NCBI GenBank assembly: GCA_902526535.1
Contig: CABZLG010000008.1
Location: 1 to 37,263 of the forward strand
Length of the DNA: 37,263 bases
Direction: 5' to 3'
Source: an uncultured SAR86 cluster bacterium
Lineage (GTDB): Bacteria > Pseudomonadota > Gammaproteobacteria > Magnimaribacterales > TMED112
Shown: positions 14,996 through 22,923 of the stretch, one piece after another
Numbering within the stretch: position 1 is the first letter of the stretch
Layout of the letters: each line of letters opens with the position of its first letter
Notes under the pieces: model-generated
What the model saw: only the letters and a program-made list of their open reading frames with translations
Told to the model about the DNA's origin: nothing
The model's database searches: none
Program-made: the position numbers and the translations under genes

Positions 14996-15434
14996 ACTAG
15001 AAGTTCAAAATTTCTCTATAAAGCATCTTGATGCAGTCTTAGATATCGAAAAGGAGGCCAATCCAACTCCTTGGTCGAAAAAGACATTTGAAAATATTCT
15101 TAACAGGAGAACTATGAGTTTTGTATGTCTGCTAAAGGCACAAATTGTTGGTTTTTGCATTGCATCTGAAGTTCTAGATGAATGTCATCTACAAAATATC
15201 TCAGTAAAGAAAGATTTCCGACACAAAGGAGTAGGACGATACATGTTTAGTATCTTATTCCAGCGATCAAAACTATTTGACATAAAAAATACTTTTTTAG
15301 AAGTTCGTGAATCAAACCGTGGTGCTAGAAATTTTTACGATAAGCTTGGATTTAGGGAAATTACAAAAAGAGCAGATTACTATGAAACTGGGAATGGACG
15401 AGAGGCAGCAGTTATTCTTCGCCTAACTCACTAG
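14958..15434 (+). CDS. rimI: RimI-like ribosomal protein alanine N-acetyltransferase
   Basis: GNAT acetyltransferase resembling RimI, which acetylates the N-terminus of ribosomal protein S18. About 158 residues. IEKEANPTPWSKKTF matches the RimI N-terminal strand. NISVKKDFRHKGVGRYMF carries the acetyl-CoA loop (RHKGVG). LEVRESNRGARNFYDKLGF and YYETGNGREAAVILRL close the domain as in RimI. There is no ATG near the start. TTG 14958 is chosen because AGAGGG lies 11 bases before it; GTG 14946, TTG 14961 and CTG 14985 are alternatives. The 5' end lies inside the enoyl-CoA hydratase gene, and the 3' end overlaps the opposing hydrolase by 23 bases. Confidence 0.85.
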   Translation: MLKKDDQTSLASELEVQNFSIKHLDAVLDIEKEANPTPWSKKTFENILNRRTMSFVCLLKAQIVGFCIASEVLDECHLQNISVKKDFRHKGVGRYMFSILFQRSKLFDIKNTFLEVRESNRGARNFYDKLGFREITKRADYYETGNGREAAVILRLTH

Positions 15435-16386
15435 CAGCAATTTTCATTGAGTAGTCATCAAAGGAAAAGTTTTCAGTAAAACTGTTATGCCCACCAAATT
15501 TTGTTTGCAGAAAATTCAAATTATCTATGTTCTGAAGATGCTGTGCTGAGTTAATAGGAACAACTGGATCATCCTCTGACATTATTATACTTATTTTAGT
15601 CTTTAGTTTTTTCATTTTATCTGCAGAGATTTTATACATGTTGAAGAATTCACTTAGGTTAACAAAATCATATTCTGGCAATACAAAAGGTAACCATTCT
15701 TCCATCATTTCTTTAATATCCGTCATCTTGTAAAACTTTCTAAGATCGTAGTCTTTCCACATAGCTTCTTTAGCACGGAATGTATTCACCCACTTTTTAA
15801 TATAATACTTATTAAAAAAATCTGATAACCCTTCAAGGGATTTCTCATGATCAATCATAGGACTAATTGCAACCACTCTTTTAAATTTCGAACCAGCATT
15901 TAGCATTGCAATACGTAATGAAAAGTTTCCTCCAAATGAAAATCCCATTAAATAATGATCACCATCGTTTTTATTTATAAGAATTTCAAGGGCTCTGCCT
16001 ACAATTTTGTGATGTAAGGCATTAAAAAATTTTTTATTCATCATTAAGGTATCACCGTGATCGACTGGATTAAGTCGGTGTATATTCCAGCCTCTTTTTG
16101 AAAAATACATAAGTGCACTAAGCATATATGAGGAGTTATCATTCCCAAGGTAGCCTGGAAGTAAATACAAGTTTTTGACACTCCCTTCAGACAAATTGGT
16201 GTAAGAAGTCATTTTAAAATCATCAACTGCAATGACTCTTCTTATTGTTTTGGCATTAAGAGCTCGTATTGTTCTAAATTTTACTATTCTTCTTAATTTA
16301 CTTAGTAAAGTGGTGCTGAAGGGTTTGTTGAATGGAAAGGGAGGTTTATAGTTTTTGTATTTACTGTAGTTCTGATTGGATGTCAT
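15412..16386 (-). CDS. YheT-like alpha/beta hydrolase
   Basis: Serine hydrolase of the family of E. coli YheT; natural substrate unknown. It has 324 residues from ATG 16386; a TTG at 16392 would add two. The first strand and oxyanion region are LYLLPGYLGNDNSSYM. The nucleophile elbow is MGFSFGGNFSLR with Ser at about 150. The acid is in MSEDDPVVPINS and the catalytic His in KFGGHNSF. A lid-like insertion between about 180 and 250 is rich in aromatic and charged residues. It overlaps the 3' end of the glutathione peroxidase gene by 26 bases on the same strand, so the two are probably one transcript. Confidence 0.85.
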   Translation of the reverse strand: MTSNQNYSKYKNYKPPFPFNKPFSTTLLSKLRRIVKFRTIRALNAKTIRRVIAVDDFKMTSYTNLSEGSVKNLYLLPGYLGNDNSSYMLSALMYFSKRGWNIHRLNPVDHGDTLMMNKKFFNALHHKIVGRALEILINKNDGDHYLMGFSFGGNFSLRIAMLNAGSKFKRVVAISPMIDHEKSLEGLSDFFNKYYIKKWVNTFRAKEAMWKDYDLRKFYKMTDIKEMMEEWLPFVLPEYDFVNLSEFFNMYKISADKMKKLKTKISIIMSEDDPVVPINSAQHLQNIDNLNFLQTKFGGHNSFTENFSFDDYSMKIAASELGEE

Positions 16387-16846
16387 TTTCAAATGATTCT
16401 GGGGCGTCTAATGAGCCAAAACGTTTAATAACTTGTCCCTTTTTAGATATAAGAAACTTAGAAAAATTCCACTTTACTGAGGTAGTTCCCATAAATCCCT
16501 TTGCTGCATCTTTTAGGAACTTAAAAAGTGGTTCAGCTTTTTCACCATTGACATTAATTTTTGAGAATATAGGGAATGAGACCCTATAATTTAGTTCGCA
16601 AAATTTAGCAATTTCCTCATTGGAGCCCTTTTCCTCTTCAGCAAACTGATTGCACGGAAAAGCGAGAATCTCCAACCCTTGATTTTGATACTTATCATAA
16701 AGTCGTTGCAACCCCTTATATTGAGGTGTGAAGTAGCACGCACTTGCAGTATTGACAACAAGCACAACCTTGTTTTTAAAGGTGGACATTGCAACGTCTT
16801 CGCCTTTTATATCTTTTGCTTTGAAATCATAGAAACTTTCTTTCAT
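16361..16846 (-). CDS. glutathione peroxidase family protein (BtuE-like)
   Basis: Thiol peroxidase of the glutathione peroxidase fold, reducing hydroperoxides with thioredoxin or glutathione. It has 161 residues from ATG 16846, matching the family N-terminus (FYDFKAKDIKGED). An in-frame ATG at 16885 would add 13 residues and overlap the divergent elaA-like start by 29 bases. The peroxidatic residue is Cys37 in NTASACYFTPQY (Cys, not selenocysteine). The other catalytic residues are Gln67 in FPCNQF and Trp127-Asn128 in VKWNFSKFLI. A possible resolving Cys lies in AKFCELN (about Cys84). A general oxidative-stress role is known for the family, not shown here. Confidence 0.92.
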   Translation of the reverse strand: MKESFYDFKAKDIKGEDVAMSTFKNKVVLVVNTASACYFTPQYKGLQRLYDKYQNQGLEILAFPCNQFAEEEKGSNEEIAKFCELNYRVSFPIFSKINVNGEKAEPLFKFLKDAAKGFMGTTSVKWNFSKFLISKKGQVIKRFGSLDAPESFENDIQSELQ

Positions 16847-16856
16847 AATTCTTTTA

Positions 16857-17312
16857 ATGTCTTCTTTATTAGAATCCGTAATCATAAAAAAGTTTCATAA
16901 TTTAGACAAGCTCGAACTTTATAAAATTATGCAACTGAGAATTGAGATTTTTGTTGTTGAGCAAGATTGTCCTTATCAGGATTTAGATGGTCTTGATGAG
17001 GTTGGTACGCACTTATGGATTGAGAAATCAGGTGAAATAGCAAGTTATCTGCGAATCAATCCAGCGAAGACTAGATTTGAAGAAGTGTCTTTTGGAAGGA
17101 TTGTTACAAAAGAAGCCGAGCGTAAAAAAGGTCTATCCGAAGCTCTTATAAGAAAGTCTATTGATTTTGTGCAAAAAGAAAAGCTTGGCCCTGTAAGAAT
17201 CTCTGCACAGAGTTATTTAGAAAATTATTATTCAAAATTTGGTTTTAAAACCTGCAGTGAGGAATATATGGAGGATAATATTCCTCATATTGAAATGTTG
17301 AGGAATGAGTAA
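16857..17312 (+). CDS. elaA: ElaA-like GNAT acetyltransferase
   Basis: N-acetyltransferase of the ElaA family; physiological substrate not established. It has 151 residues (E. coli ElaA 153). The diagnostic stretch is QLRIEIFVVEQDCPYQDLDG, followed by THLWIEKSGEIASYLRI, SFGRIVTKEAERKKGLSEALI (acetyl-CoA region) and ISAQSYLENYYSKFGF, ending with DNIPHIEMLRNE. The only ATG upstream of the conserved region is at 16857, ten bases from the chosen start of the divergent peroxidase gene. The promoters of both must therefore lie within coding sequence. The 3' end overlaps the DNA methyltransferase start by eight bases, so the methyltransferase may be translated as part of this transcript. Confidence 0.9.
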   Translation: MSSLLESVIIKKFHNLDKLELYKIMQLRIEIFVVEQDCPYQDLDGLDEVGTHLWIEKSGEIASYLRINPAKTRFEEVSFGRIVTKEAERKKGLSEALIRKSIDFVQKEKLGPVRISAQSYLENYYSKFGFKTCSEEYMEDNIPHIEMLRNE

Positions 17313-18498
17313 ACCTACTGTTGTCGGTCTTTTTGCAGGATGTGGTGGTCTTGATTTAGGCTTTAAAAAGGCTGGTTTTGAAATCATTTGGGCTAATGAT
17401 TTTGATAAAGACTCTGTAAAAACCTACGAAGAAAATATTGGAAAGCACATTGTCCTAGGTGATATAACTAAAATAAAGAGTTCAGAGATACCCTCAGGAT
17501 TTGATGTTTTACTTGGTGGCTTTCCGTGCCAAGGATTTTCAGTTGCGAATATTAAAAGAAGTGTTAAAGATGAAAGAAATTTTCTATATCTTGAAATGCT
17601 GAGAATAATTAAGGATAAGAGGCCAAAATTTTTTGTAGCAGAAAATGTCAAAGGAATTCTTTCCCTTGGTAAAGGGGAAGTTATGAAAATGATCATATCT
17701 GACTTTGAGGATATTGGTTATAAAGTTGACTATAGAATGTTGAAGGCAAGTGATTATGGTGTTCCTCAACACAGAGAAAGAGTTTTTATCATTGGAAATA
17801 GAATTGGTTGTGAAAATCCTTTTCCAGAGAAAACTCATGGGCTATCAAATGACTTATTTAATCAAAATATAAAACCATATGTTACAGCTCAAGAAGCTGT
17901 GGGCCACTTAAAAAGTGTCAGGACCAGAGATAAGCCATTTAAACTCAATGGAAAGACAATTTACAATCATGTGGCAAGAATGAATGTTAGTGACAAATTT
18001 TGGGGTAGAAAACATAAAGTTAATCAATTTGATATTTGTGACTATTTAAAAAAGTGGAGAGAGGGAAGTGGTTGGTCAACAAAAAAAATTGATGAGTACT
18101 TTGGCTATGCCCATACTGCTGGCCACTGGTTTAGAAAAGATAACAATTCAGGGTCTATACCCAATCCTGATGATTGGCGAGAATTAAAAAAATTACTTAA
18201 ATTTGACGATAAATATGACAAACAAGTTACCGAGTTAGAGGAAAAGACAATTGTTTTTGAACAATCTTTACGAATAAGTAATTGGGAGGAACCAAGTGAT
18301 ACTTTGACTGCTACAGGACCTGAAATTCATCCTAATAAAAAAAGACGAATGAGCGTCAGAGAATGCGCAATACTCCAATCGTTTCCTGACAATTTCGTTC
18401 TTCATGGTGCAATCGGCAGTATGTACAAACAAATAGGAAACGCTGTGGCACCTAAACTAGCAGAAAAAATTGCAAAACTAATCTTTAAACTTATTTGA
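17305..18498 (+). CDS. DNA (cytosine-5) methyltransferase, probable type II R-M modification enzyme
   Basis: Methylates cytosine at a specific DNA site, probably protecting the host against the nuclease genes facing it. It has 397 residues. Motif I is GLFAGCGGLDLGF (8-20), motif IV FPCQGFS with nucleophile Cys75, motif VI AENV (112-115), and motif VIII PQHRERVFIIG (154-164). A variable target-recognition region spans about 185-330. Motif IX-like RECAILQSFPDNF and motif X YKQIGNAVAP follow. The recognition region contains an HTH-like segment (about 245-305; YFGYAHTAGHWFRKD, then PNPDDWRELKKLL). It overlaps the elaA-like gene by eight bases and the opposing gene by 21 bases at its end. Target sequence cannot be predicted. 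Confidence 0.95.
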   Translation: MSKPTVVGLFAGCGGLDLGFKKAGFEIIWANDFDKDSVKTYEENIGKHIVLGDITKIKSSEIPSGFDVLLGGFPCQGFSVANIKRSVKDERNFLYLEMLRIIKDKRPKFFVAENVKGILSLGKGEVMKMIISDFEDIGYKVDYRMLKASDYGVPQHRERVFIIGNRIGCENPFPEKTHGLSNDLFNQNIKPYVTAQEAVGHLKSVRTRDKPFKLNGKTIYNHVARMNVSDKFWGRKHKVNQFDICDYLKKWREGSGWSTKKIDEYFGYAHTAGHWFRKDNNSGSIPNPDDWRELKKLLKFDDKYDKQVTELEEKTIVFEQSLRISNWEEPSDTLTATGPEIHPNKKRRMSVRECAILQSFPDNFVLHGAIGSMYKQIGNAVAPKLAEKIAKLIFKLI

Positions 18499-18870
18499 GT
18501 TTTTTTGATCTATTAGCTCCTGCATTTTACTCTTAATTTTCTCCTTATCAGACCCTTTAGTCATTCGATAATATTCAAGTTTCCCTCCCTCATGAAGATG
18601 TGGGAATTCTTTTTTAATTTCTGTTTCAATATCCTCTCTTGTTTTCTTATCAAAATCTACTTCCCAACTTTTATACTCTTTAACATTAATCTTTCTACAG
18701 AAACTACATTTATAGGTCGTATTGTAGCCCTTCAAACGTCCTTCATAATCACTAGTTTCTCCAATTTTAATATGGTCATTCGTAACTTTAAAAGAGTTCT
18801 TTTTGCCCTTTTTAGAATGCATATACCCATTTTCTTGACATTGACATATGTCAAACTCAAAAATATACAT
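18478..18870 (-). CDS. small T5orf172/GIY-YIG-like protein, putative nuclease
   Basis: Unnamed protein of 130 residues from ATG 18870 (a TTG at 18891 would add seven). The pattern resembles the T5orf172 branch of the GIY-YIG fold. MYIFEFD is the first strand with Tyr2, DHIKIGETSDYEGRLKGYN stands for the YIG strand and the following Arg helix (Arg45), and EDIETEIKKEFP has Glu residues (82, 84) where the metal-binding Glu would lie. A CSFC motif (55-58) and Cys9/Cys11 are possible metal ligands. It is last in the minus operon and convergent with the methyltransferase, overlapping its 3' end. GIY-YIG restriction enzymes exist (Eco29kI, Hpy188I), so it could be the restriction enzyme or an accessory nuclease. 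Fold assignment is by eye and moderate. Confidence 0.6.
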   Translation of the reverse strand: MYIFEFDICQCQENGYMHSKKGKKNSFKVTNDHIKIGETSDYEGRLKGYNTTYKCSFCRKINVKEYKSWEVDFDKKTREDIETEIKKEFPHLHEGGKLEYYRMTKGSDKEKIKSKMQELIDQKNSNKFKD

Positions 18871-18912
18871 AGCTTTTTTTGATTTTTCCAAGACAATTTT
18901 CCTGAATAATTA

Positions 18913-19764
18913 TTAGATCTTAAATGTTTTAAAACCTTCCCACTGAACTCCCCCAGAATCGAATCTTTTTCGGAGACTATCATGATCTATTCTTACGGAT
19001 GAAGTTCCTTTAGGTTTAGGCACATCTGGAGGATTATATGACTTTACACCACTTACTATATCAAAGTTATATAAACTCGATATTTCATAATGCGGCATAC
19101 AAGAAAATTTAATATTATCTAGAAATTCATTTTTAACAATAGTTTTATCTTTTGTTTTGTTTGAATAATAAGGTTTTACTGGATGTTTACCATCGTCATA
19201 CCATGAATCTTTTTGATTAATTTCATCAATATGGTAAAGAGTTGATAAGAAAAAAGATAAAACAGGTTTAGATTTGTGATAGTGTTTTAATAAACTTGTA
19301 ACCGGTACTTTTATTTTTTTTCTTTTTGCATAAAAATTTAATTTGTTATCAAACGATGTTTGATTACAACCTATAACTTGCCTATCCCAATCATCTGAAT
19401 TTCCGTCGACGCTTATTGTTTTAGAATCAATATTAATTACAGCATCTTTAGTAACAAATGCTGTATCAGAACTGATCACCGAGGGATATATTGAGGTAAT
19501 GTGTTTCTGCAAAAGTGGATCATTATAAACTCTATAATTAATGTGTCTTTCAACTGCTAAGTCCACTACATTTGTTTTACCCCACAAAGTGTGAATCCTC
19601 CTCCAATTTTGATTTATATCATTCATTATTGCTCTTAATTCATTTTTAAAAGTTTGTTTTGAAAAAATACTAAAGAGAATATCAAAATATTTTTTTTCTA
19701 AATCTAAAACCTTTTTTTGTTTTAAAGTGTAATTTTTATAATTACTATCTTGATATCTTGTCAT
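18913..19764 (-). CDS. putative type II restriction endonuclease, PD-(D/E)xK-like
   Basis: Unnamed 283-residue protein. A DxK-type nuclease core can be seen: Glu72 in LAVERHINY, Asp100 in VISSDTAFVTKD, then the hydrophobic strand AVINIDSKTI with Asp113 and Lys115, followed by IGCNQTSF (Asn134, Gln135). The order Asp, then Asp-x-Lys on a beta strand, is the catalytic pattern of many type II restriction enzymes. The C-terminus has a basic, proline-rich tail. It lies second from the end of the minus operon, next to a C5 methyltransferase, which is the main reason to call it the restriction subunit. The start overlaps the stop of the 88-residue gene by one base. The specific enzyme family is not recognised. 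Confidence 0.65.
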   Translation of the reverse strand: MTRYQDSNYKNYTLKQKKVLDLEKKYFDILFSIFSKQTFKNELRAIMNDINQNWRRIHTLWGKTNVVDLAVERHINYRVYNDPLLQKHITSIYPSVISSDTAFVTKDAVINIDSKTISVDGNSDDWDRQVIGCNQTSFDNKLNFYAKRKKIKVPVTSLLKHYHKSKPVLSFFLSTLYHIDEINQKDSWYDDGKHPVKPYYSNKTKDKTIVKNEFLDNIKFSCMPHYEISSLYNFDIVSGVKSYNPPDVPKPKGTSSVRIDHDSLRKRFDSGGVQWEGFKTFKI

Positions 19765-20030
19765 TAATGTTTTCTTTTATCAGGTAAGCTATCAAGTCTC
19801 TGAATAATTTCATCATGAGCGCAAATTACATCTTCCATTGTGACCGAAAATTTTTCAGGTAATTTTTTTCTGGTAGAGGCAAGTTTTTTAAAAGCATTAA
19901 GCTCAACATTGGTCTCTAATAGAAGCATACAAATTAATTCAGTTTGGTTATTTTCAATCAATTCCATAAGTCGATACATTATCTCGTTAGAGGAGGATCT
20001 CAGACGATCAGAATATTCATTTAATTCCAT
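19764..20030 (-). CDS. small helical protein of unknown function
   Basis: I do not recognise this 88-residue protein. It is predicted by eye to be almost wholly alpha-helical, with a leucine- and glutamate-rich central helix (YRLMELIENNQTELICMLLLE), a Lys/Arg-rich turn (KKLASTRKKLPEK), and a second helix (DEIIQRLDSL) ending in basic KRKH. There is no signal peptide or clear membrane span. It is coupled by one-base stop-start overlaps (TAATG) to both the Cas4-like gene before it and the putative endonuclease after it, so it is surely co-translated with them. A small adaptor, specificity or regulatory subunit is possible, but nothing in the sequence decides. Confidence 0.7.
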   Translation of the reverse strand: MELNEYSDRLRSSSNEIMYRLMELIENNQTELICMLLLETNVELNAFKKLASTRKKLPEKFSVTMEDVICAHDEIIQRLDSLPDKRKH

Positions 20031-20791
20031 TATGCATCCTCCACATTCTGCTGAGACAGATTCCAGCGTGCTTTTAAATAATTACAGTTTTCACAGGTTG
20101 GTGTTGATTTGGGCATAGGACCCTCTAGACTTTTCTTTGTATCTAAAATTGCTTGGTCAACCCAGCTAAAGTCACAATCAACTTTAATAAGGTGAAGATC
20201 AAATTTTATTTCTTGATTGAACATTGGCTCATTTTTTCGACCGTTGTAATAAACTAGGTAGGCTTCTGGAGCAACCTCGAAACCATTTTTCTTTAATAAA
20301 TATTGATACATTTCAAGTTGTCTTTGATAGCTTTTAGGATAATCGTATTCGGCACAAGTTTTTTCCCAATCAAATACTTTTTTTGCCGTTGCTTTAACAT
20401 CTGCAACAATTAGTTCACCTGTTGATTTTTGCCAGACATCATCTATTGCGCCGCCAAAGTTTATGCCATTCTCTTCATCAATAGTCCTAATGCCCTTACG
20501 CCAATTTCGCCAGTCATCAAGTTGCTCGTGAGCGAATGGAACTGCATCAATGCCATGCTCAATAAAAAGAGGATGTGGTTCAGCCTTTGCTCTGTAATAA
20601 TCAAATTCATTTTTACACAGCTCATCAACCGCAATATTCAATGTGAAAGGTAAAGAGAAAGGTTTGATTCTATGTTTCTTATCTAAAACAAAACAACGAG
20701 GGCATTTTATATTTTGTTCAACACTTGTTCTACTTATCTTAATCATGGAAGTAGCTTTTTTAAAACGATCCTTAGCTTCAATTATAGTCAT
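20030..20791 (-). CDS. Cas4/RecB-like PD-(D/E)xK nuclease with two CxxC motifs
   Basis: Member of the PD-(D/E)xK nuclease superfamily resembling Cas4/RecB nuclease domains. Length is 253 residues from ATG 20791; ATG 20746 (starting MIKISRTS) is an equally good choice, and the upstream TTG 20836 is unlikely. CPRC (Cys30, Cys33) and CENC (Cys233, Cys236) flank the core and could bind Fe-S or zinc, as the paired cysteines of Cas4 do. The catalytic core is GGAIDDVW (Asp117/118), LIVADVKAT (Asp131, Lys133) and the QxxxxxY helix SYQRQLEMYQYL (Gln156, Tyr162). There are no cas1, cas2 or CRISPR repeats in the window, so a CRISPR role is not supported. It is the first gene of the minus operon. Confidence 0.8.
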   Translation of the reverse strand: MTIIEAKDRFKKATSMIKISRTSVEQNIKCPRCFVLDKKHRIKPFSLPFTLNIAVDELCKNEFDYYRAKAEPHPLFIEHGIDAVPFAHEQLDDWRNWRKGIRTIDEENGINFGGAIDDVWQKSTGELIVADVKATAKKVFDWEKTCAEYDYPKSYQRQLEMYQYLLKKNGFEVAPEAYLVYYNGRKNEPMFNQEIKFDLHLIKVDCDFSWVDQAILDTKKSLEGPMPKSTPTCENCNYLKARWNLSQQNVEDA

Positions 20792-20803
20792 AAAATTATT
20801 TAA

Positions 20804-20833
20804 TTTATAAGAATGAATAGTCAGGCATGACAA
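20804..20833 (-). promoter_or_regulatory. promoter-like element for the nuclease operon
   Basis: On the minus strand, TTGTCA (20833 down to 20828) lies 18 bases upstream of TATAAA (20809 down to 20804), five of six matches to each sigma-70 hexamer. Transcription would begin near 20797, giving an almost leaderless mRNA for ATG 20791 or a 50-base leader for ATG 20746. The spacer is filled by the left arm of the 20810-20883 inverted repeat, so a protein on that arm would block the promoter. Read by eye only. Confidence 0.45.
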
Positions 20834-20883
20834 CAAGGAGATAGACTTAGTTTTATATAATCCATCATGCCTGACTTCATTCT
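20810..20883. repeat. 19-bp inverted repeat, operator-like
   Basis: The arm at 20810-20830 (AGAATGAATAGTCAGGCATGA, with an extra AT inside) is complementary to 20865-20883. This gives 19 matching base pairs with one two-base bulge across a 34-base spacer. Each arm contains the near-palindrome TCAGGCATGA. The left arm sits between the -35 and -10 hexamers of the minus promoter. The right arm sits just after a plus-strand TATAAT at 20856-20861. This placement suggests paired operators of a divergent control region. A long-stem RNA hairpin or an element end are the other readings. Confidence 0.75.
20856..20861 (+). promoter_or_regulatory. perfect -10 hexamer TATAAT, plus strand
   Basis: TATAAT in the context TTTTATATAATCC. 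Transcription would start near 20868, inside the right arm of the inverted repeat, and run through the 20-codon ORF towards the 388-residue gene. No good -35 hexamer is found 16-18 bases upstream, so it would need an activator or be weak. Confidence 0.4.
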
Positions 20884-20905
20884 AGCAAGAGGAGGATTAA
20901 GGAGT

Positions 20906-20968
20906 ATGAAAAAAACCTTCTTGCTAACTTCATTTATAGCTCCTCCTAAGAGCATGGTTGTTGGTTGA
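20906..20968 (+). CDS. 20-codon small ORF with strong ribosome binding site
   Basis: ATG 20906 to TGA encodes MKKTFLLTSFIAPPKSMVVG. AGGAGG at 20890-20895, ten bases upstream, is a perfect Shine-Dalgarno sequence and contrasts with the SD-poor genes around it. A second AAGGAG (20899-20904) is too close to the ATG to work well. TCCTCCT at 20941-20947, inside codons 12-14, is exactly complementary to AGGAGGA (20890-20896). TAGCAAGA (20883-20890) can instead pair with TCTTGCTA (20919-20926). Two competing RNA folds could thus hide or expose the ribosome site. It could be a leader peptide for the downstream gene or a stand-alone small protein. Function unknown. Confidence 0.5.
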   Translation: MKKTFLLTSFIAPPKSMVVG

Positions 20969-21116
20969 AGTTCCCCAAAAATATTAATTAAAGGCTATTT
21001 AAATATAGCTGTAAAATATATTTATACGGTTATATTATCATAATTGAATCAAAAAACTCCAAATATAGTCAAAAACTGTATGTTTTTTTTCATTTTCGTG
21101 CTTAAATACCCCTTAT
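20969..21116. other. AT-rich leader before the 388-residue gene
   Basis: This is the rest of the divergent gap 20792-21116. It is very AT-rich and has a short palindrome GCTATTTAAATATAGC (20994-21009). TTGAAT (21044-21049) and TATAGT (21064-21069) are only 14 bases apart, too close for a normal promoter. No intrinsic terminator, tRNA or further ORF was found. There is no Shine-Dalgarno sequence before ATG 21117. Confidence 0.5.
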
Positions 21117-22283
21117 ATGGACTTTCAAACATCAAAATTTAGAGAAATAACAACTAAAACACCAGATCCACATGACAGTTCAAAAACTTTAGAACTTAAT
21201 TGGTTCACCGATTTAGACGAAAAGTCATTAATAGTTGAGGAATCAACTATAAAAAGAATTACAGATCCTGAATTTGCAAATTCTGTTGCTTTTAAAACAG
21301 GTAGCTTAAATAAAACAGCATTAACTCATAAGTTTGGTTCTGCAGTTACAATTAATGATTTTCAATATTGGAAATTATCGTTAGCATCAAAAGCTCTGAA
21401 AGTTAAATATAAAAAAAATATTTCCATAGCAAATGTAATTAAAAAGTTTACAAACTTTTCTTTAGGATCAAAAAATATAGATGACCTCACTATTCCTCTA
21501 GCGTATACAGAGACTAGCGATGATGTTTTAATTATTAGAAGTTATCTCAATAAGTATGTTGTTACTCAAGAAGGACCTTTTGCACTAGGATTGGCAAGTC
21601 TTACTTATCATCAGATTCCTGCGATAAGATCTTTATATTTAGCACTTATTGAACCCCAATTACTGGATGTTGAAGATTTATTTCACATTACATCTCTTCT
21701 TGAAGAAACCAAACGTATTCATTGGGTAAATTTATTAGATGAATTAAACGAAAAGCTTAGAAAAGAGAGATTAGAATTTCAATTACTAAAATATACAAAT
21801 TATCCAAAATCTAAAGAAAAAGGTAAGAAGATAAACGAACTAGATGCACTTATTTCAATATGCTCTGACATGATAGAAGAAGAGTGGATAAAAAATTTCA
21901 ATCCTGCTGAATTACAAAATTTTCTAGCAAATGTAAGGTTAGATTTTCAAACTCCATTTAATGCTATAAATAAAGAATACAAAAAATTAAGGACTGAGCT
22001 CGATCAAAGTATAAAGTCTAGTGGATTACTAAATTTTGCTGGGCCACTGCGACCTTCTGCTTTAGTTTTTGCTATGGAGCGAAGATTAAGGCAAGAAAAT
22101 AATGAAAAACAAAAGGAACTTGCTGAATCATACAAAAAAATTAAATACATACAGCACGAACTTAGTGCAAAGAAATTTTTATTAATAGGTATGTCAGCAG
22201 AACAGTTGGAAAAGGCCATAACAAGATTTAAGCTCCTTAAGGATTTAGAGAAAAAAATTGCGGGGCATTTTACTTCAAGTTAA
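21117..22283 (+). CDS. 388-residue protein of unknown function, C-terminal coiled coil
   Basis: Not recognised. The N-terminal half (1-130) is mixed alpha/beta with no known motif. About 130-190 is hydrophobic and helical (ALGLASLTYHQIPAIRSLYLALI). The region from about 195 to the end is highly charged and helical, with coiled-coil-like stretches at about 195-240 and 280-385 (MERRLRQENNEKQKELAESYKKI). There is no signal peptide or definite membrane span, so it is probably cytoplasmic. It is divergent from the nuclease operon, shares its control region, and overlaps the opposing SDR gene by 14 bases. The length and even residue composition argue for a real gene. Position suggests a defence-related or regulatory role, without proof. 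Confidence 0.8.
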   Translation: MDFQTSKFREITTKTPDPHDSSKTLELNWFTDLDEKSLIVEESTIKRITDPEFANSVAFKTGSLNKTALTHKFGSAVTINDFQYWKLSLASKALKVKYKKNISIANVIKKFTNFSLGSKNIDDLTIPLAYTETSDDVLIIRSYLNKYVVTQEGPFALGLASLTYHQIPAIRSLYLALIEPQLLDVEDLFHITSLLEETKRIHWVNLLDELNEKLRKERLEFQLLKYTNYPKSKEKGKKINELDALISICSDMIEEEWIKNFNPAELQNFLANVRLDFQTPFNAINKEYKKLRTELDQSIKSSGLLNFAGPLRPSALVFAMERRLRQENNEKQKELAESYKKIKYIQHELSAKKFLLIGMSAEQLEKAITRFKLLKDLEKKIAGHFTSS

Positions 22284-22923
22284 CCATGCCACCATCGACA
22301 GGAATAACTTGTCCGGTCATCCAGTTTTTATGAGCTTCAAGTAAAAAATCTATTGATTTCGCAATTTGCTCTGGAGAACCTATTTGTTTCATCGGATTTC
22401 TTTCTTTACTAGACTCAACTAGTCTTTCAGTCTTAAGAAGATTTGTAGCCATAGGCGTATTAGCTAAAGAAGGCGCTACAATATTAAAGGATACTTTTGC
22501 ACCAGCATACTCTGCAGCCATAGATCTTGAAAAGGCTTCAAGAGCTGATTTAGCTGGTGATACGCTTGCATGAAAAGGCAAGCCAATACTGGCAGCTACA
22601 GTTGATATAAATACAACTGAGGATCCATCAGCTTCCTTTAATTTTCCAATTAATTTTCTTACTATTTTGACAGCTCCTAAAAAATTAATTTCTAGATCTG
22701 ATTGAAAATCTTGATCTTTCAGCATTGTAAATGGCTTTAAATTTATAGATCCTGGAAAATAAACTAAACCGTTGATGCTTCCTATATCATCTAATTCAGT
22801 AAGGTCGCCATGAATATCAAAATTATTATTCTCTCGTGAAAAGCAAATAAAATCTCTACTAGAAATCTCCTGAAGAGATTTTGCAATTGCTGAGCTAGAA
22901 CCTATTAAAACAACTTTAGACAT
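22270..22923 (-). CDS. short-chain dehydrogenase/reductase-like protein lacking catalytic Tyr
   Basis: Rossmann-fold SDR family member, 217 residues, substrate unknown. The cofactor motif is LIGSSSAIAKSL (6-17). Asn80 in EINFLGA and Ser107 in VFISTVAAS match the catalytic Asn and Ser. The YxxxK position reads Val121-Ser-Pro-Ala-Lys125, so the Lys is kept but the proton-donating Tyr is Val; the codon is GTA. The end GQVIPVDGGMVNL is the usual SDR C-terminal motif. It lies 15 bases after valS on the same strand and may be co-transcribed with it. It could be a non-catalytic or binding paralogue, or use another donor. Confidence 0.9.
   Translation of the reverse strand: MSKVVLIGSSSAIAKSLQEISSRDFICFSRENNNFDIHGDLTELDDIGSINGLVYFPGSINLKPFTMLKDQDFQSDLEINFLGAVKIVRKLIGKLKEADGSSVVFISTVAASIGLPFHASVSPAKSALEAFSRSMAAEYAGAKVSFNIVAPSLANTPMATNLLKTERLVESSKERNPMKQIGSPEQIAKSIDFLLEAHKNWMTGQVIPVDGGMVNLK

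What the first reader, a model, noticed from the sequence alone, without database searches (positions are those of the whole stretch)
17305..22283. Compact restriction/defence-like island with a methyltransferase, three candidate nucleases, a small helical protein and an orphan
Seen: a C5-cytosine methyltransferase faces a four-gene minus operon with overlapping or near-abutting genes (Cas4/RecB-like, 88-residue helical, DxK nuclease-like, GIY-YIG-like), divergent from a 388-residue unknown. All other genes in the window are core-like; this block alone is accessory. Known: type II R-M systems normally need one methyltransferase and one nuclease. Inference: three different nuclease-type proteins tied to one methyltransferase suggests either a type II R-M plus a degradation module, or an undescribed multi-component system.
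Basis: partly seen in the sequence, partly recalled or inferred. Interest (0 to 1): 0.75.

Follow-up and report, generated by a model that had tools for sequence, protein, structure and literature searches.

The report
Restriction system with swapped DNA-cutting enzyme
This is an ordinary two-gene bacterial DNA-defence system (one enzyme marks the cell's own DNA, the other cuts unmarked DNA) sitting beside unrelated local genes, but comparison with relatives shows that the cutting enzyme is repeatedly exchanged for distant cousins while the marking enzyme next to it hardly changes.

Summary
The window is from a SAR86 marine bacterium. The working unit is a type II restriction-modification pair: the C5-cytosine methyltransferase (17305-18498) and the 283-residue PD-(D/E)XK endonuclease (18913-19764), whose model matches SfiI and BglI (Z 16.3, 15.8; next 8.4). 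Homologous pairs recur in 24 genomes from Prochlorococcus to Clostridia and on a plasmid. The Cas4/RecB-like nuclease is an order-wide SAR86 gene that follows the GNAT gene in 16 relatives and is merely flipped here. The 88- and 388-residue genes occur only in the sister genome; the 137-residue T5orf172/GIY-YIG-like gene is absent even there. The site is a defence-gene hotspot. The unexpected result: the endonuclease is swapped beside a nearly constant methyltransferase (98% methyltransferase but 35% endonuclease identity in two SAR86 genomes; 96% and 32% in Prochlorococcus; 87% and 30% between the window and its sister, where the methyltransferase 3' part was exchanged too). Flanks stay mostly above 90% identical, and trees reject vertical pairing. 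Shared specificity and any reason for the swapping are inferred, not shown.

The parts
17305..18498 (+). C5-cytosine DNA methyltransferase, 397 aa (modification enzyme)
   Evidence: PF00145 5.7e-86, TIGR00675 2.4e-78; PCQ, ENV and QxRxR motifs intact; target-recognition region conserved in 24 aligned MTases
18913..19764 (-). Type II restriction endonuclease, 283 aa, PD-(D/E)XK fold, BglI/SfiI-like; active site E72-D100-D113-K115 (type A of the family)
   Evidence: Homologs beside every close MTase relative; AlphaFold model pLDDT 78.6, VIA Z 16.3 SfiI / 15.8 BglI, next best 8.4; D100 and K115 invariant in 28 sequences, D113 nearly; quartet matches BglI E87/D116/D142/K144 (PMC548270)
17660..19770 (.). 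Segment exchanged between this genome and its sister G004: MTase from about codon 120, the 137-aa gene and the REase
   Evidence: Nucleotide identity 98% up to about 17600, 47-86% inside, 96% from 19800 on
18478..18876 (-). 132/137-aa T5orf172/MUG113/GIY-YIG-like small protein (alternative TTG start at 18891); local accessory gene, function unknown
   Evidence: Below-threshold Pfam hits; conserved Y4, R47, E101 (alignment numbering) in three SAR86 homologs; absent from G004; structure search inconclusive
19764..20030 (-). 88-aa protein, no family, between Cas4-like gene and REase; only here and in G004
20030..20836 (-). PD-(D/E)XK (RecB/Cas4-like) nuclease, order-wide SAR86 gene, flipped here and in G004 relative to 16 relatives; not part of the R-M unit
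21117..22283 (+). 388-aa orphan, found only in G004 (88% identical)
16857..17312 (+). Left boundary of the hotspot: GNAT-like acetyltransferase gene kept in relatives
22270..22923 (-). Right boundary of the hotspot: short-chain dehydrogenase gene kept in relatives, followed by a valyl-tRNA-synthetase-like gene

Best explanation
A type II restriction-modification pair occupies a defence-gene hotspot in a SAR86 genome. The C5-methyltransferase marks a cytosine in a fixed recognition site in the cell's DNA; the BglI/SfiI-like endonuclease, probably as a dimer or tetramer, cuts incoming DNA lacking the mark. The pair sits between GNAT and SDR genes, and the resident Cas4-like gene has been inverted together with it, so that the endonuclease now lies downstream of the Cas4-like and 88-aa genes. 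Across this R-M family the endonuclease gene behaves as a replaceable cassette: recombination in the conserved methyltransferase and flanking genes swaps in distant endonuclease homologs, which should be tolerated because the host is already methylated at the site they cut. Shown by sequence: the pair, the fold and active site, the hotspot, the flip, the swaps. Inferred: enzyme activity, a shared target of all variants, and why swapping is tolerated.
For: MTase and REase families and motifs. REase fold. Co-occurrence: all 24 loci with MTase identity of 56% or more (L034-L058 without L042, whose contig ends) carry a member of the REase family next to the MTase, as does a Vagococcus plasmid. Swapping: L036/L037 MTase 98%, REase 35%; L038/L039 96%/32%; L039/L043 95%/30%; window/G004 87%/30%, with sharp identity steps at the gene. 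Trees: holding the REases of window and G004 as a clade is rejected, p-AU 8.6e-6; L036+L037 7.6e-8; four Prochlorococcus loci 1e-39, whereas the MTases of the same loci group together. MTase target-recognition region about as conserved as the catalytic part in swapped pairs. An Arg in the C-terminal recognition strand (R258 in the window) is seen by eye in nearly all REase types. Hotspot: other defence genes at the same site in G013 and G006, empty or nearly so in others.
Against: No methylome or cleavage data; the recognition sequence is unknown. The window REase is about 30-70 residues shorter than its type-A relatives, in the C-terminal part, and could be impaired. The close-pair sample is small (SAR86, Prochlorococcus, Pelagibacter; one genome per species). 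In the window/G004 case the MTase 3' part was exchanged too, so it is not a swap of the REase alone.
Confidence: 0.85

Rival explanations
1. An undescribed multi-component defence system in which the MTase, three nucleases and the helical protein act together.
For: Tight packing and one-base overlaps of Cas4-like/88-aa/REase; the Cas4-like, 88-aa and R-M genes are kept together in G004.
Against: Cas4-like gene present without this R-M throughout the SAR86 order; REase and MTase present without the 88-aa and GIY-YIG-like genes or a Cas4-like homolog in 23 other loci; GIY-YIG-like gene not in G004.
Confidence: 0.04
2. REase differences between close MTases are fast divergence of one gene rather than replacement.
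For: Restriction endonucleases are known to diverge fast, and all variants share one family.
Against: The G004 REase is 65% identical to Prochlorococcus REases but 30% to the window's; AU tests reject vertical pairing; sharp identity steps at the gene edges.
Confidence: 0.06
3. R-M plus a functionally linked accessory nuclease: the T5orf172/GIY-YIG-like protein between REase and MTase helps the R-M, for example by degrading cut DNA.
For: It lies inside the segment exchanged together with the REase; putative catalytic Y, R and E kept in three homologs; a homolog in G003 overlaps a DpnI-family gene.
Against: Absent from the other MTase loci, including the sister; family assignment below curated cut-offs; fold search inconclusive.
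Confidence: 0.15
4. The REase has been captured into the operon of the core Cas4-like nuclease, which now sets its expression.
For: One-base stop/start overlaps in the window; in G004 the REase abuts the 88-aa gene; same arrangement in both sister genomes.
Against: Only two closely related genomes show it; elsewhere the pair exists without a Cas4-like gene. It is compatible with the best explanation.
Confidence: 0.2

Closest known systems
BglI (GCCNNNNNGGC) and SfiI (GGCCNNNNNGGCC) restriction endonucleases
   Same: Fold (Z 15.8 and 16.3, 220 and 206 residues aligned), E-D-D-K active site, PF14562 (BglI) hit for a sister REase at 5.5e-9, three family members match PF11487 (SfiI) weakly
   Different: 14-18% identity; the base-reading residues given for BglI (K266, D268, R277, R279; PMC548270) are not evidently kept; partner here is a C5-methyltransferase, whereas from memory BglI and SfiI pair with N4-cytosine methyltransferases; specificity unknown
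Type II R-M systems with C5-methyltransferases (e.g. HaeIII, HhaI)
   Same: MTase class and catalytic motifs; best solved-structure matches are M.HaeIII and M.HhaI
   Different: Best aligned stretches cover the catalytic part only; the target-recognition region is of its own type
[quoted passage not shown] 2002, cited in PMC3368837 and PMC4615327)
   Same: An endonuclease gene replaced at an R-M locus
   Different: From memory the replacing gene there is not a homologous endonuclease; here distant homologs of one endonuclease family replace each other

Membership tests
Type II restriction-modification system | DNA methyltransferase with intact catalytic motifs | tested here: met
   PF00145 over residues 6-395, PCQ/ENV/QxRxR present
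Type II restriction-modification system | Separate endonuclease gene adjacent, with intact nuclease active site | tested here: met
   D100, K115 invariant and D113 nearly invariant among 28 homologs; fold of restriction endonucleases
Type II restriction-modification system | The two genes co-occur across genomes | tested here: met
Type II restriction-modification system | Both enzymes act on the same site; methylation blocks cleavage | not testable with these tools
   needs expression, cleavage and methylome data
BglI/SfiI-like endonucleases | Fold of BglI/SfiI well above other restriction enzymes | tested here: met
   Z 16.3 and 15.8 against 8.4 for the next (SwaI)
BglI/SfiI-like endonucleases | Sequence family match above curated cut-off | tested here: inconclusive
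   met by sister L043 (36.1 bits against 25), none for the window protein itself
BglI/SfiI-like endonucleases | Recognises GCC/GGC half-sites split by five bases | not testable with these tools
   base-reading residues not evidently conserved; no cleavage data
GIY-YIG / T5orf172 (137-aa protein) | Profile match above cut-off | tested here: not met
   19.4 bits against 20 for T5orf172; 11.7 against 22.6 for GIY-YIG
GIY-YIG / T5orf172 (137-aa protein) | Fold match | tested here: inconclusive
   best Z 4.0 to designed proteins; UPF0213 3.2 and UvrC GIY-YIG domain 2.5 among the rows
CRISPR Cas4 (268-aa protein) | Score above the Cas4 equivalog cut-off | tested here: not met
   TIGR00372 23.9 bits against 65
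CRISPR Cas4 (268-aa protein) | cas genes in the neighbourhood | tested here: not met
   neighbours in the window and in nine relatives' loci compared are the GNAT, SDR and other kept genes; no cas genes identified

The most novel reading that the evidence does not exclude
The endonuclease slot of this R-M family is under selection for exchange: phage-encoded inhibitors of the nuclease, or another nuclease-directed pressure, favour cells that replace it with a distant homolog of the same specificity, while the methyltransferase stays fixed because the genome is already marked for that site. This would make it an R-M counterpart of cassette-swapping toxins.
Probability: 0.25. Interest if true: 0.72.

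Novelty: new variant of a known kind. Interest (0 to 1): 0.47.

Why it matters
It removes a false lead (a supposed multi-nuclease island) and replaces it with a testable pattern: one methyltransferase type is served by at least four deeply divergent endonuclease types that replace each other at the same locus in two bacterial phyla. If they share a target, these are natural sets for asking how different proteins read one DNA sequence, and whether phages select on the endonuclease itself. The Vagococcus plasmid copy, annotated 'hypothetical protein', shows that the REase family goes unrecognised in at least one public record.

Tried and rejected
Multi-component system: rejected by neighbourhood data. 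Prophage origin: no relatives of the window's Cas4-like, REase, 137-aa, 88-aa or 388-aa proteins in viral contigs, nor of the REase and 137-aa protein in phage records. Relatives of the 388-aa orphan in a sample of 249 genomes of the phylum: none but the window. The REase profile in a phylum sample of 398 genomes found only the window, so the family is sparse. Direct sequence match of the REase family to solved structures: none significant; the fold search and Pfam hits of sister proteins showed it. PADLOC model PDLC03522 in 14 control genomes: none. Structure of the 137-aa protein: no clear match; GIY-YIG neither confirmed nor excluded. BglI recognition residues could not be transferred to predict a site. 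More SAR86-order (203) and Prochlorococcus-family (400) genomes gave no further close MTase, so the swap statistics rest on the loci reported. Laying out the whole genome for a site-avoidance test was not available.
Full report
What is there. The window is a whole 37-kb contig (C8) of a 0.77-Mb genome. The contig of its same-genus relative G004 has the length (33,669) of the SAR86 single-cell contig AG-907-K13_NODE_10 that holds the same locus, so the host is a SAR86-cluster gammaproteobacterium.

The pair. The methyltransferase (17305-18498) is a C5-cytosine enzyme whose best solved relatives are M.HaeIII and M.HhaI, over the catalytic part. The 283-aa protein has no Pfam family but a weak PADLOC REase_II match. 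Its relatives, collected beside MTase homologs, gave a 28-sequence alignment with invariant D100, K115, Q135 and P224 and nearly invariant D113. The AlphaFold model (pLDDT 78.6) matches SfiI and BglI at Z 16.3 and 15.8, the next enzyme being at 8.4; a sister protein hits Pfam's BglI family at 5.5e-9. E72, D100, D113 and K115 correspond to BglI E87, D116, D142 and K144 (PMC548270; the correspondence of E72 is my reading of the alignment). So this is the restriction endonuclease.

The rest of the 'island' is not part of that unit. The Cas4/RecB-like gene is found in 46 of 61 SAR86-order genomes. In 16 same-genus relatives it directly follows the GNAT gene on the same strand; in the window and G004 it is inverted and lies beyond the R-M pair. 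The 88-aa and 388-aa genes occur only in G004. The 137-aa gene is missing even there; distant homologs (31-35%) occur once in an integrase-bearing region and once overlapping a DpnI-family gene.

The place is a hotspot. Between the Cas4-like and SDR genes, relatives hold nothing, a single small gene, a D12-class MTase with other genes (G006), or a large island with MzaE/AIPR, AAA, vWA-like, WYL and C5-MTase genes (G013).

The pair travels. MTases 56-88% identical to the window's occur in SAR86, Prochlorococcus, Pelagibacter, another alphaproteobacterium, Flavobacteria, Bacillales, Clostridia, patescibacteria and a Woesearchaeon. All 24 loci in which the neighbourhood is held have a member of the REase family beside the MTase. 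A Vagococcus plasmid has the pair too, its REase annotated 'hypothetical protein'. Two viral contigs hold an MTase of 58%; the one read (L124) has no REase beside it.

The unexpected result. The REase tree splits into at least four deep types, which I call A-D, plus divergent Pelagibacter-like forms, and they do not follow the MTase tree. Two SAR86 genomes (L036, L037) have 98% identical MTases and flanks of 89-100% nucleotide identity, mostly 97-100%, yet REases of 35% identity. Prochlorococcus loci at one site (rimM-like gene, MTase, REase, glmS-like gene; L047 is cut by the contig end on the left) have 94-96% identical MTases with REases of type B, A, B and D: 26-35% between types, 78% within B. 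Window and G004: MTase 87%, REase 30%; nucleotide identity drops from 98% to 47-86% between about 17660 and 19770 and returns to 96%. AU tests reject that the REases at each of these sites form a clade. Some Firmicutes loci and a Flavobacteriales locus carry two REases of different types (L053, L057, L050, L040), a plausible intermediate. The MTase target-recognition region is about as conserved as the catalytic part in swapped pairs, and an Arg near the C-terminus, at a place where BglI reads bases, is seen by eye in nearly all REase types. I infer, but did not show, that the types share the target site. An alternative that fits equally is that each type reads a longer site containing the MTase's motif.

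Mechanism proposed. Donor DNA from a cell with the same MTase is already methylated and escapes restriction; recombination anchored in the MTase and flanking genes replaces the REase; the host is protected because its methylation already covers the site. Whether selection (for example phage proteins that bind the REase) drives the exchange is open. Gene replacement at R-M loci has a precedent in H. pylori hrgA (cited in PMC4615327), but I found no paper in the held library describing this homolog-for-homolog exchange; that search was limited.

Limits. One genome per species, few close pairs, single-cell and metagenome assemblies, no functional data. The window REase is shorter than its type-A relatives in the C-terminal part, so it could be weakened. 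REase type labels A-F are mine, read from the tree.

Noticed in passing
window 20820-20875 (hairpin arms), region 20815-20990: Intergenic region upstream of the Cas4-like gene folds into strong hairpins (z -2.97); the first has a paired change between window and G004 (20826 C to T with 20869 G to A), so the stem is kept. No Rfam family; found only in these two genomes apart from a 21-base match in G006. A mini-ORF inside it is not conserved.
   Followed up: partly
window 15000-16850: RimI-like, hydrolase-like and glutathione-peroxidase-like genes look like a second recombinant block: the first and last are 51% and 66% identical to G004 and the hydrolase-like gene is missing there, although genes around are 91-98%; the RimI-like and hydrolase-like genes are 91% and 81% identical to G007.
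   Followed up: no
L124, L125 (viral contigs of about 108 kb): Viral contigs carry a related methyltransferase (58%); in L124 no endonuclease lies beside it and ParA/ParB-like genes follow: possibly self-protection against this R-M specificity.
   Followed up: partly
L114 201-1047: A T5orf172-like gene overlaps a DpnI-family gene near a glmS-like gene in SAR86 G003: possible small defence cassette.
   Followed up: no
L053, L057, L050, L040: Loci with two REases of different types of the same family beside one methyltransferase.
   Followed up: partly
L026 10282-18965: Island at the same hotspot with MzaE/AIPR, AAA, vWA/metallopeptidase-like, WYL and C5-MTase genes.
   Followed up: no
L035-L037, upstream of the REase (e.g. 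L037 7186-7449): A different 87-92-aa small gene precedes the REase in three SAR86 loci; no match to the window's 88-aa gene.
   Followed up: no
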